NCBI GenBank assembly: GCA_003242035.1
Contig: QBMC01000008.1
Span: 1-58,851 of the forward strand
Source: Nodosilinea foveolarum
Lineage (GTDB): Bacteria; Cyanobacteriota; Cyanobacteriia; Phormidesmidales; Phormidesmidaceae
DNA length: 58,851 nt
Reading direction: 5' to 3'
The notes beneath the pieces are model-generated. The model was not told the origin of the DNA. It saw only the letters and a program-made list of their open reading frames with translations, and searched no databases. A program made the position numbers and the translations under genes. Shown in pieces: positions 9,017 to 51,183 of the stretch. Positions within the stretch are counted from its first letter, which is position 1. The number at the start of each line of letters is the position of its first letter.

Positions 9017-9105
9017 ATACTCTGCCCCTTTAGTTCTCCTGTATCTTAGGAGTAGCTCAAGGGCAGGAATGCTCTATATCCCGAAAGTAAGTTGTAAAAG
9101 GTGCA

Positions 9106-9486
9106 TTATGACCACACCGTCGGCACCTTGAGCAGCCGTGTGGTTCCATCCTTTTTGGGAATCGGGACTTCCCGCAAGCCTTGGTGGTGCCAATCGAAGA
9201 CGTTGGCCGCTAGCACCTCAGCTAGTTGAAACCGTTCGTGATGCTGAAGAGAAGCTCTCCCGTCCACACCAGCGGTTCTTTTCCCCTGGTTGAGTTGGGT
9301 AACTTGTCGGACTGCCATGAGCTGGGCACATCTCGAACGAAGGAGTAACTTTTGCAAGTTCTTCGCTCTATCCGTATCCTTCGCTTGAATCGCTTTCCAG
9401 ATGCGATGTTGTAGCCGGAACAGTGCGCGTCTAAACCTTTTCCAAGGCAGCGCGTTCCAAGATTCGCTATGTCGAGTAATCGTCAT
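9106..9486 (-). pseudogene. Group II intron RT/maturase, N-terminal part (gene split by insertion)
   Basis: Codes for the start of the intron protein: WNALPWKRFRRALFRLQHRI, then KNLQKLLLRSRCAQLMAVRQ, and KRTAGVDG, the RT-0 and RT-1 signature of bacterial maturases. It ends in the IPKKDGTTRLLKVP motif and then four foreign residues (TVWS) encoded by the inserted element. Real intron coding therefore ends at the GGCAC core (9122). The remaining 460 residues are at 5050-6438. The start is ATG at 9486, in the usual position in domain IV. Confidence 0.9.
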
Positions 9487-12587: not shown

Positions 12588-12592
12588 GATAG

Positions 12593-12648
12593 ACCAGTAA
12601 ACCAGTAAACCAGTAAACCAGTAAACCAGTAAACCAGTAAACCAGTAA
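12593..12648. repeat. Seven tandem copies of an 8-bp repeat (ACCAGTAA), candidate parS of locus 1
   Basis: Exact tandem copies of ACCAGTAA fill the parA1-parB1 gap, starting at 12593, 12601, 12609, 12617, 12625, 12633 and 12641, followed by a degenerate ACCAAAAG that runs into the parB1 ribosome-binding site. Such short iterated sites are typical centromeres for small ribbon-helix-helix ParB proteins. Confidence 0.85.
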
Positions 12649-12663
12649 ACCAAAAGGAAAAAT

Positions 12664-12978
12664 ATGGGACGTTTCTCAGATAACGGACTTAAGAAAACAT
12701 CACCTAAAGTCAGTGAAGATGCGCTAGCGGCAGAAGATCAAAAAACCAATAAACCAATAGTAGAGAAGCATGACCAAAAAACCGCCGAAGATATCTACAC
12801 TGCTGAACAGCTCAAGCCAGTTAATGTAGGCGGATTTCGCGTTCCGTTAGCCGTAAGAGCACATTGGCAATCCTCCGCAAAGCTTAATGGGGACAAGGTG
12901 GCCACGCTACTACGAGACTACCTAAAAGATCGCTACGGTCTACCGGATGGCATTAGCGAAGAGGATCTATTCTGTTGA
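12664..12978 (+). CDS. Small ParB-like centromere-binding protein, locus 1
   Basis: 104 residues directly downstream of parA1, with AAAAGGAAAAAT before the ATG. The basic N-terminal tail is likely disordered. The C-terminal half (FRVPLAVRAHWQSSAKLNGD, then KVATLLRDYLKDRYGLP) looks like a ribbon-helix-helix dimerisation and DNA-binding domain. The C-terminal part resembles the locus-2 partner at 50857 (LxxxVRxxxx...YGLP/FDLPEG endings). Codons near 12740 themselves contain the repeat-like string AAACCAATAAACCAAT. It should bind the flanking 8-bp repeats and stimulate ParA. Confidence 0.7.
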   Translation: MGRFSDNGLKKTSPKVSEDALAAEDQKTNKPIVEKHDQKTAEDIYTAEQLKPVNVGGFRVPLAVRAHWQSSAKLNGDKVATLLRDYLKDRYGLPDGISEEDLFC

Positions 12979-12991
12979 TAGTAATTTCACT

Positions 12992-13039
12992 AACCAATAA
13001 GCCAGTAAACCAATAAGCCAGTAAACCAATAAGCCAGTA
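12992..13039. repeat. Three tandem 16-bp repeats downstream of parB1
   Basis: AACCAATAAGCCAGTA occurs three times in tandem (12992, 13008, 13024). Each is two copies of the 8-bp locus-1 motif (ACCAATAA and GCCAGTAA). Nothing else is apparent between 13040 and 13165. Confidence 0.85.
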
Positions 13040-13165
13040 AACCTATTTAAGCGTGGTACTACTCCGCTGAAAAACAGTGCTAAAGCAATTAAGATTTGAG
13101 TTGAAATCATTCATAGTCTGCCCCTAGCGGGAAAGCTAAGCGTAGACCCCTCAGCCTACATACCT

Positions 13166-14870: not shown

Positions 14871-16658
14871 TTACCAAACCTCCGCTACTTTCTTGTTCAT
14901 TAACTCTCTTTTATTCATCAGAGCTTCGGCAGGTCTAGCTGCCCTGGGAGATTTAGCCTTCGAATCCTCTAAGGCGAATAGATCCTCAAGAAACTTTCTG
15001 CGCTTGACCACAACTTCTGGGTCAGAGCTGCCCACTTGAGTTCTGTCAATCAACCGCTGCCTCACTTTTGGCCATAACGCCTCGCACCTATCCGAGATCG
15101 CCGCTTCGGACTGCGGTATTTTGATTTGGCCGATGATGGGAACGTATGCTTCTTGCTTGGAAGCGTAGCCAGGATTAATAAAAATCCCCTTCCCGGTAGG
15201 ATATTTCAGCAGCGTGGCAGGTTCGACCAGGGGCCGTTTGTTGAGCTGTTTAGAAGAGGTTGTAGAAGCCTGCTTCCCACGACTGCGACTAAGCTGCTTA
15301 ATGTCCATATTCTCCTCACCTAAGTAGCTAGAAAAGTACTCAGCGCTGGCCTTATCCTGCGGATTGAGGATAAACTTTGTCCCGCAGCCGCCGATCACCG
15401 TTTGTAAAACCCCCTTACCGTAGCTTTCTTCGAGCTGACCGATATTTTGAAAGCCGATGATGGTACATAATCCCTTAAACCGCCCTTCGGTCACCCACCT
15501 TTTAAGATTGGGCAAATAAAGTGAGTCAATCTCATCTAGAGAAACGACCAGCGGATCTTTGCGTTCCTTCCCGTACAGGTTGTGGTTGACAATCATTTGA
15601 AGCACCGTCGCGAGCAGTGGAGAGACCGCATCGCGCCGAGTTTGATCCATCCCAATCACTAAAAGCTGTTTGCCTTCCATATCAATCGGAATCGTCGTTT
15701 CACCACAAAGCGTAGCAATCAGCTCTCTGACTAAAAACCGAGAGAAAATCCGCTGCGCCGTCCCGATCACGCCGCTCACCGTTTTCTCCGAGTCCTTGAG
15801 CTGAATAACCTGAGAAAACGCCATATGTGTCAGCGTCGATAGCTGCCACTCGTCTTTTGCCGCGTTTTCACTCCGGGTCTTCGCCGCTAAAATCCGCTCA
15901 GGCAGCTTATCCAAACTAGATAGCAGCGCCGCCGTCATCAGATCAGGTTCAGGCAGACTTTTCGCCAGCATCATCAGCGCCTGCATAAGCTGGTCGCCCG
16001 CATCGCCGAAGAACTCATCGCGCTGGGCACTGGCCTTGCCTGCTAAGTTGGCATTGAGCGCCGCGCCAATCTGCCGCGCCATCAGTCCATCGTCGCCATC
16101 CTTCATAAAGTCGAGGACATTGCAGACGCCGCTTTCAGGAAAGCCAGGGGCAAAAACGTTGACCTCATAGCCCTGCTGGGCAGCATAGGCGACTATCTTA
16201 GAAGACTGCTCTGGATACTTGAAGTCATAAATGATAGTGGGAAAACCCTGCTCAATAGAAGAGCGAATCAACGGATCGATGACGCTGTAGGTCTTACCTG
16301 AGCTAGACGAGCCAATGGCCGCGATCGCCCTCTGCGCATCCGTAACGAACAAAGCGCCTGGCCTAGTTGTATAGCCCTTCTCAGTGACTGTGACTGACTG
16401 GGTGCAGAGCGTTACTTTGTTATGCTTTTTCTCAGCAATCTGTTCAAAGCCCTTTTTCTTAGCGGCCTTCTCATCGACCCGTCCGCCCTTTCTTGCATGT
16501 GCCAGCTTACGCCGCTCACTGCCACCCCCCTCACCCATAAATAGCGTCGCGACAAAAAGCAGAAGAACAAAGACACCTGTTTTGACAATAGTGGGATCAA
16601 CAGAGATGCCCAAATCGACTGGGGCTTCCTTGACTTCGGTTTGAGCAATCACGTTCAT
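14871..16658 (-). CDS. virD4: Type IV coupling protein VirD4/TraG/TraD-like
   Basis: 595-residue ATPase that links the relaxosome to the secretion channel. One hydrophobic segment (GVFVLLLFVATLFMG, residues 28-42) anchors it in the membrane. Walker A is GSSSSGKT (116-123) and Walker B LVVSLDEID (369-377). FIINP-type sequence and a TSSK-rich C-terminal half follow. The N-terminal membrane part is short compared with TraD/VirD4, which usually has two or more segments. The start ATG overlaps the previous stop (ATGA) with GGAGAATT as ribosome-binding site. It is encoded in the mating-pair operon, as in many conjugative plasmids. Confidence 0.88.
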   Translation of the reverse strand: MNVIAQTEVKEAPVDLGISVDPTIVKTGVFVLLLFVATLFMGEGGGSERRKLAHARKGGRVDEKAAKKKGFEQIAEKKHNKVTLCTQSVTVTEKGYTTRPGALFVTDAQRAIAAIGSSSSGKTYSVIDPLIRSSIEQGFPTIIYDFKYPEQSSKIVAYAAQQGYEVNVFAPGFPESGVCNVLDFMKDGDDGLMARQIGAALNANLAGKASAQRDEFFGDAGDQLMQALMMLAKSLPEPDLMTAALLSSLDKLPERILAAKTRSENAAKDEWQLSTLTHMAFSQVIQLKDSEKTVSGVIGTAQRIFSRFLVRELIATLCGETTIPIDMEGKQLLVIGMDQTRRDAVSPLLATVLQMIVNHNLYGKERKDPLVVSLDEIDSLYLPNLKRWVTEGRFKGLCTIIGFQNIGQLEESYGKGVLQTVIGGCGTKFILNPQDKASAEYFSSYLGEENMDIKQLSRSRGKQASTTSSKQLNKRPLVEPATLLKYPTGKGIFINPGYASKQEAYVPIIGQIKIPQSEAAISDRCEALWPKVRQRLIDRTQVGSSDPEVVVKRRKFLEDLFALEDSKAKSPRAARPAEALMNKRELMNKKVAEVW

Positions 16659-18469: not shown

Positions 18470-20209
18470 TTAACCTCCTATCGCGACGGCTTGATTGATA
18501 AATATTTCAATGTCGGTGCCTTCTTCTAGAACCCAAACAGAAGGTCGCTCTCGTAACTCCTCTGCCCGCTGCTGATTGCGAGCAGTCCTCTGATTAATTA
18601 TGGTGTTGGCCCCGCCCTCCAAGACCGCCCCAAGAATATTGGGAGAACCATAGTCAGTAGAACTGATAGAGCCAGTTAATCCAACAGAACTAGAAGAATT
18701 GCTAGGGCGGTTAAGCACTCTACCGACCGTTCCGAGCGCACCGAGAAACGCCTGCCCAACATCTAATCGGCGGAGTTCCTGATCAGAACCGGAGATATCC
18801 TTTGCCATTAGCACTTTTCCGTCAGCCCCTTGAATAGAAATAGCCTCAGCCGGAATCTGCATATCCTCGTAGCCCGCGTAGGGAAGAATGATGGAGGTGA
18901 CGCTTAGGCCGGTCATGCCGCTTTCACTTATTTGATCTAGTGCCACGATGAGCTGCGTCCCAACGGGCATAATGATGCCACCGCCTGAAATCAAATCTTC
19001 AGTCAGCTCAATCGCCCCCGACGTGCTCTGCATATCCTCAGCCCAGGCAATCGGCATAATGATTTGGCCGCTAGCCCTGACGCCAGGTAAGACAACCGTC
19101 TCTCTTTGTGGTTCTATTGACTGGCTGCTATTGCCCATAATGAAGTCAACTCCCGTCTCGTAGCGATTGTCAGCGACCAGCGCCACATCGGTAAGCTCGT
19201 CTCTAGCCATGACTTCTGACTGGATAGGCGATCGCGCATCGTATTCAGCGTTTTGGAACGAGCTACTACTCTTGTTGCTAACGAGCACAGGAATAGGTTC
19301 GTTGCCAACCGGCATGGAGGTTATCCCTGGCTCTGCTACCTCTGTAGCGGCTGGCGTATTGCTGATCTGCCCATAGCTACCGAGAGCGGCTAACTTTTGC
19401 CACTCAGTAAAAGGATCTACCGGTCGTTGATTTTGCGGAATAGATTGATTTTGCTGAATCGGTAGACTTTGCTGAATCGGTAGACTTTGCTGAACCGGTT
19501 GAGATCTAGATGCCTGGAAGACCGGCGCTGCGACAACCTGTGATGGTCTAGAGACAACCGGGCGTGGCCCGACGGGCGGAGTGGATACTGCAATAGGTCT
19601 AGAACGTGCAATGGGGCGTGGCTGTGCGACGATGGGCTGTACCGGTGGGCGTGGTTGCTGTACCTTTGCCGGTTCAGAGACTCTAGTGGATGGTCGTTCT
19701 GCAACCGGTCTAATCTCAGTCCGTCGAGTCGGCTGATTCTCTAGTACAGAAGCTTGATTGCCCAGCGCGTTAGAGGTCTTGAGCCTAGCAATTTCCTCCT
19801 GCTGGTCTTGCTCTACTGAAGTGTCAGCCGGTTCAATGCTTTCAACAACTTCAGTCTCCTCAGCCTTCCCAGACAGCTTCATGCTAGTCAGACTAATTAA
19901 GATAAATCCTGAGACCGCGCAAACTACACCCAGCGGCAGTGCAATAGAGACTATTTTTGCCGTCGGCTTTTCCCACAGCTTGCGCTGCGTGGGGCCGTCT
20001 TCTCCTCCTATATCAAAGTCACCGTCATCAACGAGCGTTTCAGTCTCCGTAGCTATCTCAGCTTCCGTTACGACAGGTTCGTCTACCGGTGATAGACCGA
20101 CTAAAGATCTCATCTCGTTGATAGAGGGTACTTCGCTATTCTCAGCACTTGAGACAGAGCTGTTGTTTTTCTCTTCTATGGGTAGATTGTCAACTGTGTT
20201 CGCTAGCAT
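18470..20209 (-). CDS. virB10: VirB10/TraB/TrbI-like core channel protein
   Basis: 579 residues. The cytoplasmic N-terminus is acidic, followed by one membrane helix (IVSIALPLGVVCAVSGFILI, about 87-106) and a long Pro/Gln/Arg periplasmic linker (about 140-280). The C-terminal VirB10 beta-barrel region follows (GQIIMPIAWAEDMQ, ISGGGIIMPVGTQLIVALDQ, then the end EEGTDIEIFINQAV). The linker contains a short Gln-rich tandem repeat encoded at 19451-19500. It would span both membranes and couple ATP use to channel gating. The start ATG overlaps the VirB8-like stop by one base. Confidence 0.85.
   Translation of the reverse strand: MLANTVDNLPIEEKNNSSVSSAENSEVPSINEMRSLVGLSPVDEPVVTEAEIATETETLVDDGDFDIGGEDGPTQRKLWEKPTAKIVSIALPLGVVCAVSGFILISLTSMKLSGKAEETEVVESIEPADTSVEQDQQEEIARLKTSNALGNQASVLENQPTRRTEIRPVAERPSTRVSEPAKVQQPRPPVQPIVAQPRPIARSRPIAVSTPPVGPRPVVSRPSQVVAAPVFQASRSQPVQQSLPIQQSLPIQQNQSIPQNQRPVDPFTEWQKLAALGSYGQISNTPAATEVAEPGITSMPVGNEPIPVLVSNKSSSSFQNAEYDARSPIQSEVMARDELTDVALVADNRYETGVDFIMGNSSQSIEPQRETVVLPGVRASGQIIMPIAWAEDMQSTSGAIELTEDLISGGGIIMPVGTQLIVALDQISESGMTGLSVTSIILPYAGYEDMQIPAEAISIQGADGKVLMAKDISGSDQELRRLDVGQAFLGALGTVGRVLNRPSNSSSSVGLTGSISSTDYGSPNILGAVLEGGANTIINQRTARNQQRAEELRERPSVWVLEEGTDIEIFINQAVAIGG
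19451..19500. repeat. 18-bp tandem repeat inside the virB10 linker
   Basis: TTGCTGAATCGGTAGACT occurs twice in tandem (19451, 19469), followed by a third partial copy. In protein it gives repeated S-L-P-I-Q-Q units. Such in-frame repeats can vary the length of the periplasmic linker. Confidence 0.8.
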
Positions 20210-22137: not shown

Positions 22138-23410
22138 CGGCCATTTCTCCCGGTAGGTGTAGCTGTCCGGCGGCTGAATGCATCCTTGCGGCATTGCCCG
22201 CTATATCAGCGCGACGAGCGCGGTTCTGTTCGCTCAGGAGCTGGGCAGTCTCAGCGTTGACCACGGCGTCAGCCGCCGCCTGTTGGCGTGAAAGCATATC
22301 CTGTTTGTACTGGCCCGCTCTAAGAACGCTATCGTTAGCGAGCTGCGCGGTAAGATTTTTCATCACATCTTGAGTGACATCCATATCTTGACTATCGTCG
22401 CCAAGCTTCGTAATGACCTCAAGTGTCCTGGTCGCCCCGTCTAAATCCGCCTTCATGTCGGCTTGACCCGCTTCACTGAGCGTTGCCTGCGCGATAGAGC
22501 GAGAGCCAAGCCGCTCTATTTCTCCTGCTAGCGACATCTTCAACGTTTCAGGTGTGGTGCTAAATCGGTCAGCGCCTTGCAACATGGCGTTAGGATTGCC
22601 ATTCTCTCCCTTAGCCAGCGCATCTAGCGTCGGCATAATCTTGCTGTAGTCAGGCAGACCCATGCTGCCAAGAGCAAAGGGGATTGACTCGGTGTAGGGT
22701 GCGGTCACGCCTGCTAATCCAGCCTGAAAAGAAGTTGCGGCCACGATTGAGGCGAGCGGGGAGGTGGGGTTGTACTGAGGCTCTACTTTGGTGCGACCGC
22801 CATTGCCAAAAATGCCACCGAAGAGGCCGCCAGTCGCTTCGTCGAGAATGCCGCCAATGGCCCCATCCTTGCCAAAAAGTCCGCCTAAAAGATTATCTAT
22901 ATAGCCGTCGATGCTGGCCATCACCCCGTCAATGGCGCGATCAACGGGTGACATAATGTTGCCAATTGCCTTATCAATCACGCCATCGACTTTGCCAAAG
23001 ACTCCATCAATTGCGCCGTCGATAGGAGACAAAAAGCCGTTGAGCACCCGGTTAATGGCCTCGTTAACCCGGCCGGTCACGCCGTCGATCGCGCCGTCGA
23101 TTTTTCCGGTCACCGGATCGATAAACCGGTTGGGGTTAAAAGTATGGTTGATGCCATCAGAGATAGTGCCTGAAATGTTAGGACGCGGCCCTGCTGTGGA
23201 CTGGCTGGCGTACGAAGGTGGAGCGCTACTAGATTGTGATGCTCTAAGGTCATCAAGGGTGATAGTCGGGCGTCCGCCCGCGCCGGGTGCAAAACCATTA
23301 CTGCTTTCAAGCTGGGTTGAGATCTCATCTAATGTGTTCTGCGCGATCGCCCGCGAGGGTGCAAGCGCACAAAGAGCGACGAGCATTACGCTTAAAGGTC
23401 TTTTCATCAC
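22130..23410 (-). CDS. Secreted VirB5/TrbJ-position protein with Ile-Asp-Gly repeats
   Basis: 426 residues with a signal peptide (SVMLVALCALAPSRAIAQ). Residues about 98-185 are a repeat tract built on IDGAIDGV, GKVDGVID, SPVDRAIDGV, likely an extended amphipathic structure. The C-terminal half is helical (LKMSLAGEIERLGSRSIAQA, TAQLLSEQNRARRADIAGNA), like TrbJ/VirB5 proteins that aid pilus tip assembly. It lies between VirB4 and VirB6, the normal VirB5 place. The repeat tract is not something I know from VirB5, so the assignment is positional. Confidence 0.65.
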   Translation of the reverse strand: MMKRPLSVMLVALCALAPSRAIAQNTLDEISTQLESSNGFAPGAGGRPTITLDDLRASQSSSAPPSYASQSTAGPRPNISGTISDGINHTFNPNRFIDPVTGKIDGAIDGVTGRVNEAINRVLNGFLSPIDGAIDGVFGKVDGVIDKAIGNIMSPVDRAIDGVMASIDGYIDNLLGGLFGKDGAIGGILDEATGGLFGGIFGNGGRTKVEPQYNPTSPLASIVAATSFQAGLAGVTAPYTESIPFALGSMGLPDYSKIMPTLDALAKGENGNPNAMLQGADRFSTTPETLKMSLAGEIERLGSRSIAQATLSEAGQADMKADLDGATRTLEVITKLGDDSQDMDVTQDVMKNLTAQLANDSVLRAGQYKQDMLSRQQAAADAVVNAETAQLLSEQNRARRADIAGNAARMHSAAGQLHLPGEMADD

Positions 23411-26166
23411 TGGATATCCTCCATTGGTTTTCCGTTCCTAATGGCCTCGGCGTATAGCTTTGAGAACTCCACATAGCCCTTTAGCTTGTCGCCTTTGAAA
23501 CGTTGTAAAACTCGGTTTCGCGCGGCTTGTTCTTCCATGTTGTTTGCCACAATCCCGAGCTGCACTTCTGACGGGTAGTATCGGCAGTGCGTTAGCATCC
23601 CGCCTGCGTCTACGAGCCAGTTCGAGTACAGCCCTGACCGTTGGGGAAAGAAAGACTTTCCGGCGTTCTTAGAGATAATCTTTTCGTCATATCTAAGGTA
23701 TTTAACAAAAGACTCAACGGCCGTTTCCTTAATTCTCCCGGTTAGAAATACGCTCATGTTTTGCATGATTTTTGCGCCTGCTGGAGATTCGCAGATGGTA
23801 TTAGGATCTTGAGCCGAGAGGAAGAGTCGGATGCCCTGTTTAGCACCGTTGGCTGCAATTCGTCCAATGAGCTTTGCGATTGAATCGTACTCAAACAGAA
23901 TGGGGCTTTCGTCAATGAAGAAGATTGACTTTGGCGCACTGTAGGCAGCTCGCAGCGCAGCGGCGTAAGCGCTGAGGGCCAGGACAGCCGCCTCATCATC
24001 ATTGGCTACGTTTCTAAGCGCAAAGACTAGAAACTGAGCGTTGGTTGGGAATGAGCTGGGCCGCGCGATCGCATTACCGATTTTAGAGTTAATCCAATAC
24101 TCAAGCTGAACGGCAATATGCTCTCTGGCATTCTTAAGCGCGGCCCCAGTCTCTTCATCGAAGCCCAGATATTCAGGTGAGTAGAAAGGGGCGAGATCGA
24201 TTAGGGTCGGTATCTGTTGCCATTCTGGTGACTTATAGCCCCCATCCATCGCCCTCTCGTAGCGAGCTTGGATAGTTTCATCTTCGAAGAACCCCTTTAA
24301 CGCTTTACCAAAAATGGCTCTGGACATTTGATTAACGCTTTGGTCAGTTGACTGCACCAGCATCAACAAAGAGCTTTCTAGAAAAGAGGTGTAGTCGCTG
24401 AATCGTTCTCTCTGAATTTCAGGAGAAAGCTCTCTAAGATCGGGAATCTCCATCAAGTTAGAACTTTCTTTTCCAATATCGAAGTAGGCCGCAATATCCC
24501 CTAAGAAATCAGCGTAGTCGGTGAACGTGCTGGTGCCGTCCGCCTTGGGATAGTCCAGTGCCACAACGGGATAGCCCTGGGCTATAAACAGCGTCAACAT
24601 GCCGCTAATCGTGACTGACTTGCCCGCGCGAGTGGTTCCCCAAATGCCTACGTTTTGATGCTGATCTATGTAGTCAATGCAAATCGGCGTACCGCCTGCG
24701 TCCGCGATCAGCTCAAAGCCCTTGCCGTCTAATTGCCGAGTCATAGTTAAAGGAACTACGCCCAGCGCTGTATCGGTCAAATAGGGAATCGTTCTTCGAT
24801 AAGGCTTATTTAGCAGCCGATCCCACACAATCGGCAACGTTTGTAGCCAATATATCCAGGCAACATCTTTCTCCCTGATAAGTCGTGCTGGGAGCGGGAA
24901 GCATCCCGAGATCAGATTGCAAGCATCATCAATTTGAGAGGGCTTATCCCGATGGACTAAGAAGACAGTGCCCGTTGTAACCGGCGCTGCGCCTTCGTAG
25001 AGCTGATATTGGGCCTCCAGTCCCTTTCTTAGCTTGATATCTGCGCCAACGTCGATAGATGACTGCGAGCTGGCAACCTCTGCCTTTCTCTGGGACGTTT
25101 TAATCACGTCCTGCATTTTTTCCCTCATGGCTTTGACACTAGAGGAGCTGACCTGAGTCACGATCTCGATGTCCTTAACTTGCGGCCTGCATACCACATT
25201 CCATAAGTACGAGAGCTGATGCCGCACGTTGGAAAAGACCTCTGGGGACTCGGTAAAGGCCATCACGCCGACGTACTTGTCTTTTACCTTTACCCACTGG
25301 TGGTCTGAGACCGGGACACGCGACTGGCCGTATTCCCCTTGAACCAAAGCCGAGCGGGGATGCATGGGCGAATTGATAGTTTCGCTAAGCCCTTGTCGGG
25401 TGCAGGTAACGTATTGGGGAATAGGCGGTGCCTCATGCTTATTAAAGCGCTGGTACAGCCGCTTCCACAGATCTTCTTTTGATAGGGGCATGACCTCTAA
25501 GCCCATCCTGACAGATAGAATTTGCTCCCACCGTAGATAGCCATTATTGAATGCGGATTCGATCAGGTTTTTGTATTTGAGGGCAGTCGTATCATTATCG
25601 AGCGCACTCTTTTTAGTAGACTCCCAAAGCGACATCACCTGTGCGATCGCCTTCTCGCTCCAATCACCGCCGCTAGCTGCTGCCGTGTCGAGACTCATGG
25701 TCTGATCGACATAGATGGTTAGCCGCTTAACTTGGCGAACACCATCCTCAGTTAGCTCCTGAGTTCGTTTTTTCTCAGAGAACAAAATAACTTGAGCCTC
25801 AGGCGAGCTTGAGTTAGCGATCAGGTTGTCCAGGTAATCCTGTCGCGCCTGATCATCGGAAAAGGATTCCATGTGGAAGGTAACCGTTCCACTCATTTCC
25901 TTAAAGCCCTGACGAAGCGCGGTTATGGTTCTTTCTACCTGCGAATCTCTGAGATTGTCGTGAATGCCCAAGCACTCAAACCCAAAGACAGACCGGATGC
26001 TTTTACTGCCCTTCTGCAGCAATGCGCAGCCAACTTGCCGTCCTTTCAATCTGATATCGACAAACGTTTCTAAGGCTAATTCCTTTTCAAAAGCGCTGAG
26101 GGTTACTGACCTAGCCCCCTTAGCAGTTGGCATTCTAATCTTCTGGTCTTTGACTTTTGTTCGCAT
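23407..26166 (-). CDS. virB4: VirB4/TraC-like conjugation ATPase
   Basis: 919-residue ATPase that powers pilus assembly and substrate transfer. Walker A is GTTRAGKS (about 507-514, in NVGIWGTTRAGKSVTISG) and Walker B SIFFIDESP (about 748-756), followed by FLSAQDPNTICESPAGAKIM. The N-terminal half has the expected nonconserved alpha/beta domain. The ORF begins with MRTKVKDQKIRMPTAKG; the ATG at 26166 overlaps virB3 by 32 bases, and the internal ATG at 26133, right after the virB3 stop, is an equally good start. All ATPase motifs look intact. Confidence 0.9.
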   Translation of the reverse strand: MRTKVKDQKIRMPTAKGARSVTLSAFEKELALETFVDIRLKGRQVGCALLQKGSKSIRSVFGFECLGIHDNLRDSQVERTITALRQGFKEMSGTVTFHMESFSDDQARQDYLDNLIANSSSPEAQVILFSEKKRTQELTEDGVRQVKRLTIYVDQTMSLDTAAASGGDWSEKAIAQVMSLWESTKKSALDNDTTALKYKNLIESAFNNGYLRWEQILSVRMGLEVMPLSKEDLWKRLYQRFNKHEAPPIPQYVTCTRQGLSETINSPMHPRSALVQGEYGQSRVPVSDHQWVKVKDKYVGVMAFTESPEVFSNVRHQLSYLWNVVCRPQVKDIEIVTQVSSSSVKAMREKMQDVIKTSQRKAEVASSQSSIDVGADIKLRKGLEAQYQLYEGAAPVTTGTVFLVHRDKPSQIDDACNLISGCFPLPARLIREKDVAWIYWLQTLPIVWDRLLNKPYRRTIPYLTDTALGVVPLTMTRQLDGKGFELIADAGGTPICIDYIDQHQNVGIWGTTRAGKSVTISGMLTLFIAQGYPVVALDYPKADGTSTFTDYADFLGDIAAYFDIGKESSNLMEIPDLRELSPEIQRERFSDYTSFLESSLLMLVQSTDQSVNQMSRAIFGKALKGFFEDETIQARYERAMDGGYKSPEWQQIPTLIDLAPFYSPEYLGFDEETGAALKNAREHIAVQLEYWINSKIGNAIARPSSFPTNAQFLVFALRNVANDDEAAVLALSAYAAALRAAYSAPKSIFFIDESPILFEYDSIAKLIGRIAANGAKQGIRLFLSAQDPNTICESPAGAKIMQNMSVFLTGRIKETAVESFVKYLRYDEKIISKNAGKSFFPQRSGLYSNWLVDAGGMLTHCRYYPSEVQLGIVANNMEEQAARNRVLQRFKGDKLKGYVEFSKLYAEAIRNGKPMEDIQ

Positions 26167-44996: not shown

Positions 44997-45119
44997 ATGT
45001 CTAAAATCTCGATAGAAAGAGCAGTAAGAAAGAGAACTTTAGCTGCACAATTGGCAAAAAGTACTGCACTGAAGCAGCATCAAGAATTAACAAAACTCAA
45101 AATTCTAGCTGGGGTCTAG
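44997..45119 (+). CDS. Possible 40-residue basic peptide
   Basis: An ATG at 44997 opens a 40-codon frame (MSKISIERAVRKRTLAAQLA, then KSTALKQHQELTKLKILAGV) with Lys/Arg-rich helical composition. An AGGAG lies too far upstream to be a normal ribosome-binding site. It is convergent with the relaxase gene and overlaps its 3' end by 23 bases. It may be a small DNA-binding peptide or a chance frame. Confidence 0.25.
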   Translation: MSKISIERAVRKRTLAAQLAKSTALKQHQELTKLKILAGV

Positions 45120-46047
45120 GCTCGACTTCAATATCTGATTGTTCATGTTCAATGCGCAATCGCTCCTCCATATCTTGATAGAGGCTTTTACACTCTGCTA
45201 GCGGGAGCGCTAGTATCTCGTCTACCAGCTCCTTCGAGTCAGCTCTGTGCTGAACGCCGTGGTAACGCCTTAAGCCGTTGAGCGAGTAGGCTCTGCCTAG
45301 CTTGCCGCCTGAGAAGGCGACTCCATCAACGGCAAAGCTGATACCGACATGCGCTCCGGCTTTCTCCTTAAGCTGAATAGAGATGTCGGGATATTTAACC
45401 CGTAGCTCCATAACTAGTCGCGTAAGCGAGGTGGACATTGGTAGGCATTCATCCAATGCCGCCCAAAGCCTTTCCTTTGGCAATAGCCGCCCTGTTCTTC
45501 GCTTTTGCCGATACTCGCCGGTCGAAAGGTTCCTCACCGCCGCTGTGGGCCTAGTCTGAGTTTGCTTGAGACTAAATCTAAGCTCTAAGTCTTTTTCTAG
45601 CTGACGGATACGGTAGCGGTCAAAGCTATTGCCAACCCACATGCCATCGTAGTCAACCGTACTGGCTGCAAGATGCCAATGACGATGGTTCGTATCATGA
45701 TGCTCAACGCCGACGTAAGGACACCGCCCATGTCCAAGCTGTTTTAGCAACATCCTCGAAATTTCGTACATAGCGGCCTGTTCGACTTGTACGCTGTCCT
45801 CAATAGGAAGACTAATCGAGTAGTGCGCAATAACCTTATCGACCTTTGGGTTCAGCCTAGCTACCTGCTTAAAGTTATGAGCAAGCTCCGATACAGTCCG
45901 CCCCGGCACGGTGCGGCAGATAACTATGTTCTGGATATTTCCAGTCCTTTGAAGCTCAGCCTCTACTGTTTCGAGCTGCTTTTTGGGATCGAACAAATAG
46001 TCAAGCAGCTTGAGCGGTTCGCCTCCCCTGGTTACCTTAATCCTCAA
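45097..46047 (-). CDS. Conjugative relaxase (MobA/VirD2-type)
   Basis: About 316 residues from the TTG at 46047 (M-R-I-K-V-T-R-G-G), which overlaps the MobC-like stop by 11 bases; the ORF is open further upstream but only over mobC. The metal-binding His triad is VEHHDTNHRHWHLAAS, motif III of MOBP/MOBV-type relaxases. Upstream is KVIAHYSISLP. The catalytic tyrosine is probably in the first 30 residues (LLDYLFDP). It nicks oriT and pilots the strand through the T4SS. It is short compared with RP4 TraI (over 700 residues) and lacks a C-terminal primase or helicase. A basic tail (EYRQKRRTGRL) may aid DNA binding. Confidence 0.85.
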   Translation of the reverse strand: MRIKVTRGGEPLKLLDYLFDPKKQLETVEAELQRTGNIQNIVICRTVPGRTVSELAHNFKQVARLNPKVDKVIAHYSISLPIEDSVQVEQAAMYEISRMLLKQLGHGRCPYVGVEHHDTNHRHWHLAASTVDYDGMWVGNSFDRYRIRQLEKDLELRFSLKQTQTRPTAAVRNLSTGEYRQKRRTGRLLPKERLWAALDECLPMSTSLTRLVMELRVKYPDISIQLKEKAGAHVGISFAVDGVAFSGGKLGRAYSLNGLRRYHGVQHRADSKELVDEILALPLAECKSLYQDMEERLRIEHEQSDIEVEPRPQLEF

Positions 46048-46333
46048 ATTGACACAACTCTGCCATGCGTTTTCGGCTATCTCCGAGGGATGCGCCGTCA
46101 AGGACATCTTGAGCGATTTCAAATAAGCGATCGCTCATTGAAGGGGAAAGCCGATCCGTTTCTATCAGACTCACCATGCAGCTAACCATTTCTACAAACA
46201 TGGCTCTGCTGTGGAGGTCTGCAAAAGCTTGTCGCTTAAGGTATTTGCTAATGCTATATCCAGCGGCCTTTGCCTTTTTTTCTATCTGATTTTTTTCGCT
46301 CTCTGAGCAGTACACACTAATTTCCATAAGCAC
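46037..46333 (-). CDS. MobC/NikA-like ribbon-helix-helix relaxosome protein
   Basis: 98 residues. The pattern EISVYCSESEKNQIEKKAKA, then AGYSISKYLKRQAFADL, is the ribbon-helix-helix of MobC/TraJ/NikA proteins, which bind oriT next to nic and recruit the relaxase. It precedes the relaxase with overlapping genes. Its start (46333) is about 20 bases from the candidate nic site, so it would regulate its own operon as it binds oriT. Confidence 0.75.
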   Translation of the reverse strand: MLMEISVYCSESEKNQIEKKAKAAGYSISKYLKRQAFADLHSRAMFVEMVSCMVSLIETDRLSPSMSDRLFEIAQDVLDGASLGDSRKRMAELCQFED

Positions 46334-46346
46334 CCCCGTTTTGCCA

Positions 46347-46354
46347 TATCTTGC
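46347..46354 (+). other. Candidate nic site (TATCTTG|C)
   Basis: TATCTTGC fits the MOBP nick consensus YATCYTG/Y, with cleavage expected between 46353 and 46354 on the plus strand. It lies between mobC and the 22-bp repeats. An eight-base match alone is weak; the position makes it attractive. Confidence 0.45.
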
Positions 46355-46390
46355 TATTCCAAAAAGCTGAGAGAAAATGCAGTTAGCATT

Positions 46391-46566
46391 ATAAGAATAA
46401 TATACGAGTAATATAAGAATAATATACGAGTAATATAAGAATAATATACGAGTAATATAAGAACAATATACGAGTAATATAAGAACAATATAGGAGCATT
46501 ATAAGAATAGTACACAAGTATTATAAGAATAATATACGAGTATTATATGAATAATATAGGAGTATT
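46391..46566. repeat. Eight tandem 22-bp AT-rich repeats in oriT
   Basis: Units start every 22 bp at 46391, 46413, 46435, 46457, 46479, 46501, 46523 and 46545, with consensus ATAAGAATAATATACGAGTA plus two bases. The first three are identical and later ones diverge. The spacing of two helical turns would put all sites on one DNA face and may bend the DNA. Likely binding sites for the adjacent TraK-like protein. Confidence 0.9.
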
Positions 46567-46578
46567 TATTCATATAAT
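46542..46578. repeat. 13-bp inverted repeat at the end of the repeat array
   Basis: ATTATATGAATAA (46542-46554) and TTATTCATATAAT (46566-46578) are exact complements around an 11-base loop. The left arm is made by the variant last unit of the array. It may be an operator for the traK-like operon. Confidence 0.75.
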
Positions 46579-46699
46579 TATCTTCGTGAAATTTAGATGT
46601 ACTTTCACCAATAGATTGAGGATAGCGATATGGTAGGAAAAAGAAACAACTTTCAAAAGCTTGATCGCTTTTCCTAGCGTTTTTCTAAAAGGTTTATGC

Positions 46700-47116
46700 A
46701 TGGGCAAAATTTACAAAGTAGACTTCGGTGAAGAGGAACAGAAAACTAAGACTATTCAGGAGCTGTTTGAAAGCATTCAGTTTTACCGCAGTGAAGGCAA
46801 AACCATTCGCTCTATACATGCTGCGCTTGAGCGTTCTGGACTATGGAAGAAAAGTCTCAGCAGCTTTTTGAAAGATTACTATCAGCATTGCAACTCAGAA
46901 AAGGGTGCTAGGACAAAAGGGTCTAAGTCTACCGTGTCTTTGCAAAGTGCTCCCACTGACAGCAAGCAGAATTCAACTGCTAACAGCCTTCAAGAGAAAA
47001 ACATCGAGAGTAAGCCACAGATTGATATTAGGACAGGCATCAAGCCAGATATGACTTTAGAGGAGAAGAGAGCAATCTCAGCTCAGATTTTTAAGAGAAA
47101 ACGAGAACAGCAGTAA
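46700..47116 (+). CDS. TraK-like oriT-binding protein
   Basis: 138 residues from the ATG at 46700, chosen because AAAAGG lies 7 bases upstream; an upstream TTG-type extension to 46661 is less likely. The N-terminal half (IQELFESIQFYRSEGKTIRS, then IHAALERSGLWKKSLSSFLK) is the helical module of RP4 TraK, 134 residues long, which binds and bends oriT. The C-terminal half is a polar Ser/Lys-rich tail. It is directly downstream of the 22-bp repeats and 7 bases upstream of the TraL-like gene. Two further proteins with this module are at 49051 and 49481. Confidence 0.7.
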   Translation: MGKIYKVDFGEEEQKTKTIQELFESIQFYRSEGKTIRSIHAALERSGLWKKSLSSFLKDYYQHCNSEKGARTKGSKSTVSLQSAPTDSKQNSTANSLQEKNIESKPQIDIRTGIKPDMTLEEKRAISAQIFKRKREQQ

Positions 47117-47123
47117 GGAAACC

Positions 47124-48008
47124 ATGACCAGACTTCATATTGTGACCGGCGATAAAGGCAACGTAGGCAAAAGCGCTTGGTGTACAGCCATGATTGAGTG
47201 CTACCGCCATCATGGAACACCGCTTGCGTTAGTAGATGCAGATAGTGATAGTCAGACGCTGAGTAAGGTGTATGACTCAGCCTTTCCAATTGAGTTTTCG
47301 GACGACCTTGAATATGCACCGTTCACAGATAGCATTTATGAGATTGCGCTCAAAGAGGTAGGGAAGAAGAAAAAAGGCGGGGACGTTCTAGTCGATCTGC
47401 CTGCCGGTGGAGAGAAGTTTATCAATAAGTGGATAAATGATTGCGATCTCACCGAGCGAGCCAAAGCCGACGAAATTACGATCATTAAATGGTGGGTATC
47501 AGACTCCGATTCAAGTTCGATTCAGATGTTTGAAAAAGACGTAGCGCGATACCCCTCTATTAAATATGTGTTCCTTAAAAACATGGGTAGAAGCTCACCC
47601 CCTCAGTGGACTAGCTTTGACGAGAGTGAAACGATAGAAGCATTGGTGAAGAAAAAGCGAATCAGCGTATATGAAGTGCCCGGTATCCCATCGGCTATTT
47701 TGGATAAGCTGAGAGTGGCAGGCGCACAGCTAATAGACGTTATCAATGATGAAGAATACAAAAAATACGGCTTGAGCACGGTGATGCGAGTGAGAAGCTG
47801 GGTCACCAGTACTCGTCGTCTCATTGATTCAGCTATGCCAGAAGAAAAGAAGAAAGCTACCAGAAAGAAAGCCGTCGCTCAAGAGTCAGGAGCTGCTACA
47901 GCCGCTGACTCTACTATGGTTGCTGAACTCTTAGAAGCACCGACAACCGTTGAAGCTAGTCCATCAGATCAACAGACGAAAGTGCCTGCAACCGTCGAAT
48001 CTCGTTAG
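47124..48008 (+). CDS. TraL-like ParA-superfamily ATPase
   Basis: 294 residues with a deviant Walker A (GDKGNVGKSAW, residues about 9-19), then ALVDADSDSQTLSKVYDS and a strand with DVLVDLPAGGEKFI. This is the MinD/ParA fold but with the substitutions seen in TraL of IncP plasmids. The C-terminal 60 residues are Ala/Lys-rich and likely disordered. Its place after a TraK-like gene and before a coiled-coil membrane protein matches RP4 traK-traL-traM. It probably links relaxosome DNA to the cell pole or channel. No centromere-binding partner of the ParB type lies beside it. Confidence 0.7.
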   Translation: MTRLHIVTGDKGNVGKSAWCTAMIECYRHHGTPLALVDADSDSQTLSKVYDSAFPIEFSDDLEYAPFTDSIYEIALKEVGKKKKGGDVLVDLPAGGEKFINKWINDCDLTERAKADEITIIKWWVSDSDSSSIQMFEKDVARYPSIKYVFLKNMGRSSPPQWTSFDESETIEALVKKKRISVYEVPGIPSAILDKLRVAGAQLIDVINDEEYKKYGLSTVMRVRSWVTSTRRLIDSAMPEEKKKATRKKAVAQESGAATAADSTMVAELLEAPTTVEASPSDQQTKVPATVESR

Positions 48009-48035
48009 CAAACTTAAGTCATATTGTAGGAAGTA

Positions 48036-48935
48036 ATGGAAACAGTCGAATATGCGAATGCGATCGCCTATCTAAGCGAACGGATAGATGGGCTAGTCGT
48101 AAAGCAAGATACATACCACGAGAAAACATGGGAGAGACTTGAGCAGTGGTCGGAGACAAACGTACAGTTAGTCAGGAGCCTGCGGGAACAATCGCAAGAC
48201 AATCGCGCATCGACCGGCACCTATCAGTCGCTCGTGCAGCACTTGCTGACATTCGCACAGACAACGCAGCAGCTCACCTCAACCACCTGGAAACTCGACA
48301 GCTCATCGGAAAAATTGATGCGCTACTTGATGGAGGAGCAAGCCGCCCAGTTCAGGAGCCTCGAAGCGAACAACGAGAAATTACAGGAGTCATCGAGCCT
48401 GCTAGCGAGATACCTGATAGAGGAGCAGTCGCCCCAGCTAGAGAACCTGAAAGCAAACAGCCAGCAGCTCAAAACCTCGTCGAGCGACTTAGAGACCTAT
48501 TTGAAGACAGAGCAGTCGCAGCGCCTGAAGCTACTGGAAACCAGCATAAGGACGTTGCTAGAGATGATCGAAGCGTCTCAGAAGACCTCATCTTCTCCAA
48601 TAGCGATCTCCTCGGTAAAGAGTACGACGACTCCGGTGCAGGACAGTTCGCCAGTCGAGGCGAACCCGAAAGCCAAGAGCCAGCCAGCCAGCAGCTCCAT
48701 GACAGCGATCGCTCACAGCATAAAGGAGAAGCAGAGCTATAGCCTATATACAGTGATGCTTTCGGTTGGGGCTTCTTTTATAACGACTGTTTTTCTACTG
48801 ATAGCCGCCTGGAGCGTTGGGGGTATTGGAAATGCACTTGCAAACATTTCGCGGATGTCGGAGCTGAGTCCTGACAAACTAGAAAATCCTGAACCTGCGT
48901 TAGGGATTGAGGAGCAGAAATCTGACGAGCTGTAA
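48036..48935 (+). CDS. TraM-position coiled-coil membrane protein with 29-residue repeats
   Basis: 299 residues. A long coiled coil (about 1-190) includes three consecutive 29-residue repeats, beginning KLMRYLMEEQAAQFRSLEAN, LLARYLIEEQSPQLENLKAN and DLETYLKTEQSQRLKLLETS (about 90-176). A polar linker leads to one C-terminal membrane helix (LSVGASFITTVFLLIAAWSV). Third gene after oriT, in the place of RP4 traM. It could tether the TraL-like ATPase or the relaxosome to the membrane. A 198-codon frame (48146-48742) runs within it in another phase. Confidence 0.7.
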   Translation: METVEYANAIAYLSERIDGLVVKQDTYHEKTWERLEQWSETNVQLVRSLREQSQDNRASTGTYQSLVQHLLTFAQTTQQLTSTTWKLDSSSEKLMRYLMEEQAAQFRSLEANNEKLQESSSLLARYLIEEQSPQLENLKANSQQLKTSSSDLETYLKTEQSQRLKLLETSIRTLLEMIEASQKTSSSPIAISSVKSTTTPVQDSSPVEANPKAKSQPASSSMTAIAHSIKEKQSYSLYTVMLSVGASFITTVFLLIAAWSVGGIGNALANISRMSELSPDKLENPEPALGIEEQKSDEL

Positions 48936-49050: not shown

Positions 49051-49461
49051 ATGGCTGAATCTGTCTATTCCCGCGAGCAGGTTGAACAGTGGCAAACCAA
49101 GCTTGAGGCGATCGCTTCTGAGCCACGCACGACCTTTACTAAAAAGCAGGTAGTCGAAGAACTGATCGACACGATTGAAACGGCACTGGAGTCGCGCTCT
49201 TATCTAGAGGTTGCAAATGGACTAAAGGACTGGGGACTAGATATCTCTGAAGGGTCACTCAAGCAGTATGTTTCTCGCTACCGCAAGGCGAATAAAACAA
49301 AGCCAGTTTCTTTGGGGAAGAAACGCGCTACGAAGACATCCGTACTGGAGGGTGATGAGAAGTCGGTGCAGGCGTCAGTAGCGGCGGATGAACCGATGAA
49401 GAAAAAGAAGGCAACGGGTGGTAAGCAAAAAGGCTTTGTTGAAATGCCTGAAGAGTTGTAA
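49051..49461 (+). CDS. TraK-like helical DNA-binding protein, second copy
   Basis: 136 residues. After a charged start, the module ELIDTIETALESRSYLEVAN, then GLKDWGLDISEGSLKQYVSR, matches the TraK-type pattern (AL..G.s...ia..L...g...s..tfk.yv.R). The tail is basic (LGKKRATKTS, MKKKKATGGKQKG). It lies 115 bases after the coiled-coil gene and is probably in the same transcript. It may bind oriT repeats with a different specificity or regulate the operon. Confidence 0.6.
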   Translation: MAESVYSREQVEQWQTKLEAIASEPRTTFTKKQVVEELIDTIETALESRSYLEVANGLKDWGLDISEGSLKQYVSRYRKANKTKPVSLGKKRATKTSVLEGDEKSVQASVAADEPMKKKKATGGKQKGFVEMPEEL

Positions 49462-49480
49462 ATTACGAATTGAATATACG

Positions 49481-49801
49481 ATGACAGTCAATATTTTAAA
49501 ACTGGAATTCAAAAGTGACTCTCACGATGCGACAGTCAAGAAGCTTATGCCGACGATAGAGTTCTATCGCTCAGAGGGTAGGAGTTTACCGGATATCTAT
49601 GCGGCACTTTGTGAGGCAAAGGCGCTTTCAAAAGGAAACGCACCTCCAATGAGTCTCTCCACATTTAGAAACGGTTATTACCAGAACCGCACCGACTCAG
49701 CCACTCAGAGTACAACGAAAAAAAACTACCAAGGAATGGGAAAAAAAGCGACTATTTCCTCTGCAAATTTCCTCTGCAAAGACGCCTGTGAAAAGTCGTA
49801 A
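49481..49801 (+). CDS. TraK-like helical protein, third copy
   Basis: 106 residues from the ATG at 49481; the frame is open from 49418 but overlaps the previous gene, and no good ribosome-binding site is seen. The module KKLMPTIEFYRSEGRSLPDI, then YAALCEAK...MSLSTFRNGYY, is closest to the 46700 protein (both have FYRSEG). The C-terminus is poor in order. Last gene of the oriT-proximal plus-strand set. Confidence 0.55.
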   Translation: MTVNILKLEFKSDSHDATVKKLMPTIEFYRSEGRSLPDIYAALCEAKALSKGNAPPMSLSTFRNGYYQNRTDSATQSTTKKNYQGMGKKATISSANFLCKDACEKS

Positions 49802-49848
49802 ATCGCGATCTTAACGTCCAATTGTTAGGAACCAGCGCGATCGTCCTT

Positions 49849-50001
49849 CTATTCTATTTTCTGCTGGTGTCTTATCCAAACCTTTTCTGCGAGGACTTTT
49901 GCCTGTTCGATTACAGCGTTTGTGAGTTCTGGGGAAGCTAGCTCCAATCCACCCATTTTGACAGCAACAAAATCGTACTCAATGATCGTGGCAATCAGGA
50001 C
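49849..50001 (-). pseudogene. Remnant of an unidentified gene's 3' end
   Basis: 50 codons open between two stops, coding-like (IIEYDFVAVKMGGLELASPE, then LTNAVIEQAKVLAEKVW), with only an internal Met. It looks like the C-terminal end of a lost gene. Family not recognised. Confidence 0.35.
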
Positions 50002-50089
50002 TCATCGTACCGCTGGACGATCCAGCCAGCCATGACAGCTCCTACCAGATGGCTAACTCCCACCTCCAGCCGGATGCTACGAATGGCAA

Positions 50090-50119
50090 CCCTATAAACA
50101 AGTAAACATATTTATAGGG
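50090..50119. repeat. Par locus 2 inverted-repeat site 1
   Basis: CCCTATAAA (50090-50098) and TTTATAGGG (50111-50119), exact complements with a 12-base spacer, 107 bases before parA2. The same arm sequence recurs at 51226-51275 and 53100-53141. Confidence 0.7.
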
Positions 50120-50226
50120 TTTTAGGTAAATATGGCGATATAAAAGGCTAGAGGTATTGCCATTAGTCCGTCATCCCTATTTATATGGTTATATGAAAGC
50201 ATAGTTACTTGTAAGCACGTAAACCT

Positions 50227-50853
50227 ATGCAATGGATCGCGGTTTCCAATATAAAAGGAGGAGTAGGAAAATCAACCATAGCCCTATCTCTAGCCCACTG
50301 GCTCGCACAAAAGGGCTACACAGTCGCCGTCGTTGATGACGACCGCAACCGCACTGTTAGCAAATGGCAAGCCCGAGCAGCCATGAACCCAAATTCAGAA
50401 CAGCCAGCCTTTAAGATCTATCCGTTTGAAGAAATAGGTAAAGCAGAAGGATGTGACTACGGCATCGTCGATACAGCAGCGAGTGTGAGTGATGAAACGA
50501 TTAAAGAGGTTACAGAGTTCGCCAACATCGTTTTAATCCCCTGCACCCCCGATATAGACGCGCTAACGGCAACCCAAGAGACTGCCGATCAGGTGATAGC
50601 CAACGGAGGCACCTATGCCATCTTGCTTAACGACTGCCCACGCGCATCAAAACGAGAAAACCAAGATATAGCAGAAGCAATCGCCGATGGAGAATACGAA
50701 CTTATCAGCCAATTCGTGAGGCACGGTATAGGTATCAAACGTGCATCGCTAGCAGGTAAGACCGTTGAGCAGATGAAAGGCACTCAGCGACTCCCGTGGC
50801 TAGACTTCAATGCAGCTTTTCAAGAATTTTCGACTAATTATCTAGAGGTGTAA
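50227..50853 (+). CDS. parA: ParA-family partition ATPase, locus 2
   Basis: 208 residues, short ParA type. Walker A is NIKGGVGKSTIAL (residues 8-20), Walker A' is VAVVDDDRNRTVSKW (about 33-47), and the B strand is YGIVDTAASVS. Similar in layout to ParA1 (11970), sharing GY.V..VDDD.NRT and ADI..A.A..ETAD-type stretches, but clearly diverged. A small ParB-like gene follows after 3 bases. The two systems have different flanking repeats, so they should not interfere. Two intact loci on one molecule suggest plasmid fusion. Confidence 0.88.
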   Translation: MQWIAVSNIKGGVGKSTIALSLAHWLAQKGYTVAVVDDDRNRTVSKWQARAAMNPNSEQPAFKIYPFEEIGKAEGCDYGIVDTAASVSDETIKEVTEFANIVLIPCTPDIDALTATQETADQVIANGGTYAILLNDCPRASKRENQDIAEAIADGEYELISQFVRHGIGIKRASLAGKTVEQMKGTQRLPWLDFNAAFQEFSTNYLEV

Positions 50854-50856
50854 CCA

Positions 50857-51183
50857 GTGGCTAACAAATTCACGCAGCAAATGAAGGCTAGCAAGGTGCC
50901 TGCTACTAAGACCTCAGTCGATATCCACCCCACACAACCAGCAGCCGCCACCGTAGAGCCAGAAGAAATTGATCCCCTCGCTCAATATTCAGAAGCAGAC
51001 CTCAAAGACGTAGTGACGCTATCGGTGAAGCTGCCCGCAGTGGTTAGGCAAGCGATTAGAACTCAATGTGCACAGGAAAACATCAAGCTTGCCACAGAAG
51101 TAAAAAAGTGGCTTGTAGAGCGCTTTGACTTACCTGAAGGTTTCACCGCTGAAACCATTTTGTCTGACGGTAGGACTAAGTAA
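50857..51183 (+). CDS. Small ParB-like centromere-binding protein, locus 2
   Basis: 108 residues from a GTG start with TAGAGGTG 6 bases upstream. The basic, polar N-terminal tail is followed by a C-terminal RHH-like domain (VVTLSVKLPAVVRQAIRTQC, then IKLATEVKKWLVERFDLPEG). Expected to bind the CCTATAA inverted repeats on either side of the locus and activate ParA2. The organisation is the same as at locus 1. Confidence 0.7.
   Translation: MANKFTQQMKASKVPATKTSVDIHPTQPAAATVEPEEIDPLAQYSEADLKDVVTLSVKLPAVVRQAIRTQCAQENIKLATEVKKWLVERFDLPEGFTAETILSDGRTK

What the first reader, a model, noticed from the sequence alone, without database searches (positions are those of the whole stretch)
46334..48935. 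RP4-like oriT region in a cyanobacterial plasmid
MobC and relaxase on one side, then TATCTTG|C at 46347-46354, then 176 bp of 22-bp repeats, then TraK-, TraL- and TraM-like genes on the other side. RP4 has the same order, with a similar length of TraK-bound bent DNA. If correct, this gives a defined oriT for a poorly studied phylum.
Basis: partly seen in the sequence, partly recalled or inferred. Interest (0 to 1): 0.7.

Follow-up and report, generated by a model that had tools for sequence, protein, structure and literature searches.

The report
Predicted cyanobacterial plasmid transfer origin (oriT)
This stretch of a Phormidesmis plasmid is very probably the spot where the plasmid is nicked to start its transfer between cells; it shares a conserved nick sequence with relatives across cyanobacteria and, in many of them, an adjoining array of 11-bp repeats, in a phylum where natural plasmid transfer has hardly been tested.

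Summary
The relaxase, MobC (TraJ-like), TraK-like (StbA/TraK family) and TraL-like proteins are confirmed by profile comparisons, most with shuffled controls; TraM is alike only in architecture. Three Phormidesmis relatives keep the layout and GCCAYATCTTGCT exactly, while the repeat sequence differs and only its period (11, 11-12/23, 23 bp) is kept. Cyanobacteria-wide, CAYRKCTTGC lies 5' of many arrays: 15 of 33 locus clusters carry it on the predicted strand, none on the other, shuffles 0.14. Two parts of the RP4 analogy fail: the array is not predicted to be intrinsically bent (R751, pKS77, R388 and R46 controls are), and the 19-bp inverted repeat beside the nick is absent. The closest working model is R388's StbA bound to stbDRs, direct repeats of 11-bp period that serve plasmid stability and transfer control. 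Verdict: a MOBP oriT with a phased TraK/StbA-type iteron array, a new variant of a known kind. Nicking and protein binding are inferred, not shown.

The parts
45097..46077 (-). MOBP-type relaxase (326 aa as taken here); catalytic Tyr27 (...LLDYLFDPKKQ) and HxDxxxxHxH metal motif kept
   Evidence: PF03432 E 6e-21; invariant Y27, H126, D128, H133, H135 across 11 cyanobacterial relatives; hhalign to IncP TraI 98.1%, E 7e-14
46037..46333 (-). MobC, ribbon-helix-helix relaxosome protein of the NikA/TraJ kind (start GTG 46333 or ATG 46327)
   Evidence: PF21983 NikA-like above cut-off; hhalign to IncP TraJ 96.3%, column-shuffled controls at most 0.8%
46343..46355 (+). nick-region core GCCATATCTTG|CT; predicted nick between 46353 and 46354 on the + strand
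   Evidence: GCCAYATCTTGCT identical in 4 of 4 Phormidesmis loci; CAYRKCTTGC in 15 of 33 cyanobacterial locus clusters on this strand, 0 on the other; the only exact match in the window
46388..46563 (+). array of sixteen 11-bp units (eight 22-bp units), predicted binding site of the TraK/StbA-like protein
   Evidence: same place and similar period but different sequence in the three relatives
46542..46578 (+). 13-bp perfect inverted repeat (ATTATATGAATAA / TTATTCATATAAT, 11-nt loop) at the traK end of the array
   Evidence: role not tested
46700..47116 (+). TraK/StbA-like protein (138 aa): N-terminal three-helix HTH-like domain, flexible linker, C-terminal helix
   Evidence: hhalign to R388/R46/NAH7 StbA 95.5% (shuffled at most 0.1%), to IncP TraK 45%; StbA (7pc1) third best of 177,635 PDB sequences at a non-significant E of 0.26; AlphaFold helices 19-69 with pLDDT about 90
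47124..48008 (+). TraL/StbB/MobD-like ParA-family ATPase (deviant Walker A GDKGNVGKS)
   Evidence: PF01656; hhalign to IncP TraL 99.2%, E 8e-20, full length; relatives annotated MobD-like
48036..48935 (+). TraM-position protein (299 aa) with a hydrophobic, probably membrane-spanning segment near its C-terminus
   Evidence: no sequence match to IncP TraM (hhalign 0.4%); C-terminal hydrophobic segment in both
14871..16658 (-). VirD4-type coupling protein of the same plasmid
   Evidence: PF02534 E 5e-27
18470..20209 (-). weak TrbI/VirB10-like protein (candidate transfer-channel component)
   Evidence: PF03743 E 1.5e-5, below cut-off
23407..26166 (-). VirB4/TraC-like ATPase candidate
   Evidence: TIGR02746 TraC E 5e-7, far below cut-off

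Best explanation
46328-46699 is the origin of transfer of a conjugative or mobilisable plasmid of a Phormidesmis-like cyanobacterium. MobC (RHH) and the MOBP relaxase bind at GCCATATCTTGCT. The relaxase cuts the + strand between G46353 and C46354, stays joined to the 5' end, and the strand leaves with the array and traK-L-M first and the relaxase gene last. The TraK/StbA-like protein binds the sixteen 11-bp units, about one per helical turn, as a nucleoprotein block next to the nick. By analogy with R388 StbA it probably represses its own operon, steadies and positions the plasmid, and with the TraL ATPase brings the relaxosome to the membrane channel. Shown: gene order, homologies, conserved nick core, conserved period. 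Inferred: nicking, exact cut position, protein binding, every in vivo role.
For: Relaxase, MobC, TraL and TraK/StbA homologies, the last three with shuffled controls. Three congeneric loci keep order and nick core while the repeat sequence differs and the period persists. Nick core CAYRKCTTGC strand-specific in 15 of 33 clusters, shuffles 0.14 clusters, seven GTDB families. Lags 11-12 or 22-24 dominate the significant periodicities downstream, 33 of 44 loci. R388, R46 and NAH7 have lag-11 repeats in the same place, where in R388 StbA is known to bind stbDRs and to control stability and transfer (PMC3098194) and to repress PstbA 50-fold (PMC3937220). The array is unique in the genome.
Against: No biochemical data. 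The window core departs by one base from the P-type consensus YATCCTG|Y (consensus from general knowledge). No nick-adjacent inverted repeat and no predicted intrinsic bend. The nick regex was written after seeing the relatives. 18 of 33 clusters lack the motif within the region scanned (in some, mobC may have been mis-called). Fold search found no match for the small helical domain.
Confidence: 0.8

Rival explanations
1. The array is mainly a partition centromere (stbDR- or parC-like) that happens to lie beside oriT; TraK-like plus TraL-like act as a segregation system and the repeats are not needed for nicking or transfer.
For: R388 StbA/stbDRs are needed for stability, and deleting the whole stb operon leaves transfer unchanged (PMC3098194). 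TraL is ParA-family. In Anabaena- and Nostoc-type relatives the oriT-side operon begins with a ParM/StbA-annotated protein and 11-bp repeats lie there.
Against: The window carries two other ParA genes (11970-12587, 50227-50853), the first followed by its own 8-bp repeat array. The array follows the oriT/traK pair in the relatives. The two roles are not exclusive.
Confidence: 0.35
2. The repeats are replication iterons of the plasmid's replication origin.
For: 22-bp AT-rich direct repeats with an adjacent inverted repeat are typical of iteron origins (general knowledge).
Against: No Rep gene was found beside the array or in the ORFs scanned. The period is 11 bp and matches the stbA-upstream repeats of R388, R46 and NAH7. 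In the relatives the array stays between nick core and traK.
Confidence: 0.05
3. The array is only the autoregulatory operator of the traKLM promoter.
For: StbA represses PstbA 50-fold (PMC3937220); the array ends 136 bp before traK.
Against: Sixteen units is long for an operator; no sigma-70-like promoter was found near it, though cyanobacterial promoters may be missed; the array starts only about 34 bp from the nick.
Confidence: 0.2

Closest known systems
RP4/R751 (IncP-1) oriT-Dtr region, TraJ/TraI | nic | TraK-TraL-TraM
   Same: Gene order, polarity, gap length (372 vs 373 bp), MOBP relaxase, RHH protein, TraL; nick core CACATCCTGC in R751 vs CAYATCTTGC here
   Different: CTTG instead of CCTG (though Azotobacter pAcX50c also has TCTTGC); nick about 20 bp from mobC instead of about 130 bp from traJ; no nick-adjacent inverted repeat; tandem 11-bp array that R751 lacks; no predicted bend; TraM unlike in sequence
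R388 / R46 / NAH7 stbABC operon with stbDRs
   Same: Three-gene operon in the leading region; StbA-family protein (95.5%); direct repeats with 11-bp period directly upstream
   Different: R388, R46 and NAH7 have MOBF relaxases; StbB group 2 Walker motif vs KGNVGKS here; their repeats are 5 + 5 copies (R388) vs 16 continuous units, and predicted bent in R388 and R46 but not here
pTF-FC2-type mobA-E regions (MobD = TraL)
   Same: Relatives of the TraL gene are annotated MobD-like; synteny with R388 and RP4 stated in PMC3098194
   Different: Not compared here at sequence level
Cyanobacterial MOBP plasmids (Leptolyngbya, Nodosilinea, Nostoc/Anabaena, Pseudanabaena)
   Same: Same relaxase family, and in many CAYRKCTTGC followed by 11-12- or 22-24-bp periodic repeats
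   Different: The operon beside oriT varies: TraK-L-M type, other HTH type, or ParM type

Membership tests
RP4-type (IncP-1, MOBP) oriT/relaxosome | MOBP relaxase with catalytic Tyr and HxDxxxxHxH motif | tested here: met
RP4-type (IncP-1, MOBP) oriT/relaxosome | RHH TraJ homologue encoded next to the nick, divergent from traK | tested here: met
RP4-type (IncP-1, MOBP) oriT/relaxosome | Nick consensus YATCCTG|Y | tested here: inconclusive
   One base off (CTTG); the cyanobacterial family has CAY[AG][TG]CTTG|C
RP4-type (IncP-1, MOBP) oriT/relaxosome | Inverted repeat (TraJ site) directly 5' of nic | tested here: not met
   19-bp arms in R751, none in the window or G006, only an 8-bp palindrome 3' of the nick core in G001
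RP4-type (IncP-1, MOBP) oriT/relaxosome | Intrinsically bent TraK-binding region in the leading region | tested here: not met
   Window array 56 degrees, shuffles 75 +/- 21; R751 100, pKS77 138, both reached by at most 3/200 shuffles (wedge values quoted from memory, positive controls behave)
RP4-type (IncP-1, MOBP) oriT/relaxosome | TraK, TraL, TraM homologues in that order | tested here: inconclusive
   TraL 99.2%, TraK 45% directly but 95.5% to StbA, TraM 0.4% with shared architecture
RP4-type (IncP-1, MOBP) oriT/relaxosome | Relaxase-dependent nicking and mobilisation | not testable with these tools
   needs bench work
R388-type StbABC/stbDR | StbA-family DNA-binding protein encoded first in the leading region | tested here: met
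   (supporting but non-significant)
R388-type StbABC/stbDR | ParA-superfamily StbB-like ATPase second | tested here: met
   (resembles the RP4 group of StbB proteins, not the R388 group: 25% to R388-type StbB)
R388-type StbABC/stbDR | Direct repeats of 11-bp period upstream of stbA, beside oriT | tested here: met
R388-type StbABC/stbDR | StbA binds the repeats and is needed for plasmid stability | not testable with these tools
   needs EMSA and plasmid-loss assays

The most novel reading that the evidence does not exclude
Cyanobacteria have their own oriT class: a nick core CAY[AG][TG]CTTG|C followed by a helically spaced iteron array whose sequence changes quickly while its period is kept, read by interchangeable adaptor systems (TraK/StbA plus ParA-like, or ParM-type), so that plasmid segregation and transfer are loaded from one site throughout the phylum.
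Probability: 0.4. Interest if true: 0.75.

Novelty: new variant of a known kind. Interest (0 to 1): 0.55.

Why it matters
A 2021 survey states that pCC7120alpha is the only cyanobacterial plasmid reported to be transmissible in vivo and that oriT is relatively little explored (PMC8600333). A sequence-defined oriT with a nick motif recurring in seven GTDB families makes natural mobilisation in cyanobacteria directly testable and helps to call mobilisable plasmids by sequence. That the repeat period is kept while the repeat sequence changes also gives a comparative system for how StbA/TraK proteins recognise phased iterons.

Tried and rejected
TATCCTGC upstream of mobC in Pseudanabaena plasmids first looked like the canonical P-type nick, but it is not kept in all members, whereas CATAGCTTGC about 285 bp away, just before their arrays, is in nearly all, so it was dropped. 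Intrinsic bending: tested and rejected. Dinucleotide periodicity spectra were suggestive but not uniform. Fold search with the TraK-like model gave nothing usable. RP4 accessions NC_001621 and BN000925 are not held, so R751 was used; pBP136 was fetched and not used. A class-wide ORF pass that missed truncated relaxases was redone with open ends. TraM homology not found. Replication iterons: no Rep gene found in the ORFs scanned. No literature search found an experimentally mapped cyanobacterial MOBP oriT, but the library is partial.

Full report
WHAT IS THERE. The window is one whole contig (G000:C288) of a 4.75-Mb cyanobacterial assembly; its nearest relatives are Phormidesmis genomes. At 46328-46699 lies a 372-bp gap between two divergent operons. 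Leftward: mobC (46037-46333) and a relaxase (45097-46077). Rightward: three genes, 46700-47116, 47124-48008, 48036-48935. In the gap, TATCTTG|C is at 46347-46354 and sixteen 11-bp units run from 46388 to 46563, alternating ATTATAAGAAT-type and AATATACGAGT-type so that the period is also 22. Autocorrelation z is 10 at lag 22 and 8-9 at lag 11. The unit occurs nowhere else in the genome.

PROTEINS. The relaxase matches PF03432 (E 6e-21) and IncP TraI (98.1%); its Tyr27 and H126-x-D128-(x4)-H133-x-H135 are invariant in 11 relatives. MobC matches PF21983 NikA-like and IncP TraJ (96.3%; shuffled alignments at most 0.8%). The TraL-like ATPase aligns with IncP TraL over its full length (99.2%, E 8e-20; shuffled at most 9%). 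The TraK-like protein is a small helical, HTH-like protein: 95.5% to R388/R46/NAH7 StbA and 45% to IncP TraK, with shuffled and reversed controls under 1%; AlphaFold gives a confident three-helix domain at 19-69 and a disordered middle. R388 StbA (7pc1) was also the third-best hit of its profile in the PDB sequences, at a non-significant E of 0.26. The TraM-position protein has no detectable homology to IncP TraM but, like it, ends with a hydrophobic, probably membrane-spanning segment.

RELATIVES. Three Phormidesmis loci (L043, L044, L045) have the same layout. All carry GCCAYATCTTGCT about 14-21 bp from the mobC start, then repeats of different sequence but similar period: L044 GGATAATATAC, about 12 copies (lag 11); L045 GACTGTATACGGATCGAGGATGA (lag 23); L043 degenerate (lags 11-12 and 23). 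I then searched 388 genomes of the class, fetched 60 loci around the best relaxase matches and placed relaxase, mobC and traL by profile. The motif CAY[AG][TG]CTTGC occurs on the predicted transferred strand in 15 of 33 clusters of alignable regions and on the other strand in none; shuffles give 0.14 clusters. Members come from seven GTDB families (read). The significant periodicities downstream are mostly 11-12 or 22-24 bp (33 of 44 loci; the loci are not all independent). The regex was derived from the relatives, so the strand asymmetry is a fairer measure than the raw count.

COMPARISON WITH RP4 AND R388. R751 has the same gene order, a 373-bp gap and CACATCCTG|C. But R751 has a 19-bp inverted repeat next to the nick that the window lacks, no tandem array and a predicted bend that the window array lacks: 56 degrees against a shuffled mean of 75, while R751, pKS77, R388 and R46 reach 100-139 and beat nearly all shuffles (wedge values from memory; that RP4's region is bent is general knowledge, and the controls agree). 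In contrast the regions upstream of stbA in R388, R46 and NAH7 have a lag-11 signal (z 4.7-6.6). In R388, StbA binds these stbDRs (9 bp plus 2), is needed for stability, and together with StbB sets transfer; TraK_RP4 is a distant StbA relative and TraL_RP4 belongs to the StbB family (PMC3098194). StbA also represses its own promoter 50-fold (PMC3937220). So the mechanism I favour joins both: a MOBP nick site as in IncP, and an StbA-style phased array.

HOW IT MOST LIKELY WORKS. MobC and relaxase occupy the nick core; the relaxase cuts between 46353 and 46354 (inferred by homology). The array side leaves first, so traK-L-M is the leading region (inferred). The TraK/StbA-like protein coats the array, about one unit per turn (inferred), with likely roles in autorepression, plasmid positioning and handing over to the TraL ATPase and the VirD4-type coupling protein at 14871-16658. 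Weak VirB10- and VirB4-like hits suggest that the plasmid may be self-transmissible; this is not established.

RIVALS. A pure partition role of the repeats cannot be excluded and is the main rival, strengthened by Anabaena-type loci in which a ParM-annotated gene sits beside oriT. Against it, the window has two other ParA genes. Replication iterons are unlikely since no Rep gene is near.

VERDICT. A real and probably functional oriT; new variant of a known kind; not an RP4-type oriT in the strict sense because two defining features were tested and not met.

Noticed in passing
window 49418-51183: Second TraK-like paralogue (49487-49801; matches the first) preceded by another HTH-like ORF (49051-49461) and followed by a ParA (50227-50853) and a small ORF: a second Stb/Par-like cluster in tandem.
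   Followed up: partly
window 11970-13043: ParA gene followed by exact 8-bp tandem repeats ACCAGTAA (7.5 copies, 12593-12652) and a 16-bp array at 12992-13043: a probable separate partition locus with its own centromere-like repeats.
   Followed up: no
window 5050-9486: A group II intron-type reverse transcriptase/HNH ORF appears split (9106-9486 and 5050-6456, minus strand), with a 694-aa large serine recombinase gene (6932-9016, plus strand) lying between the halves. Judged from the translations only.
   Followed up: no
window 31551-39188: 2545-aa ORF with methyltransferase-like, helicase and MutS_I-type matches; best NCBIfam match is DISARM DrmD helicase, far below cut-off.
   Followed up: partly
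G000:C177 (L058): A second TraL/TraM-like locus on another contig of the same genome, with a different protein at the TraK position.
   Followed up: no
L040, L159, L160, L164: In Anabaena/Nostoc-type plasmids the operon beside oriT starts (in L040, the annotated one) with a ParM/StbA-annotated actin-like protein; 11-bp repeats (GTTCGATGGTT type) follow the nick core on that side, as if parC and oriT were fused.
   Followed up: partly
window near 27088 and 44982: Strongest predicted intrinsic bends of the window (138-143 degrees over 126 bp), both outside the array.
   Followed up: no
Azotobacter pAcX50c (L082): An IncP-like proteobacterial oriT with TGTCTTGC instead of YATCCTGC, suggesting that CTTG is tolerated in the IncP family.
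   Followed up: no
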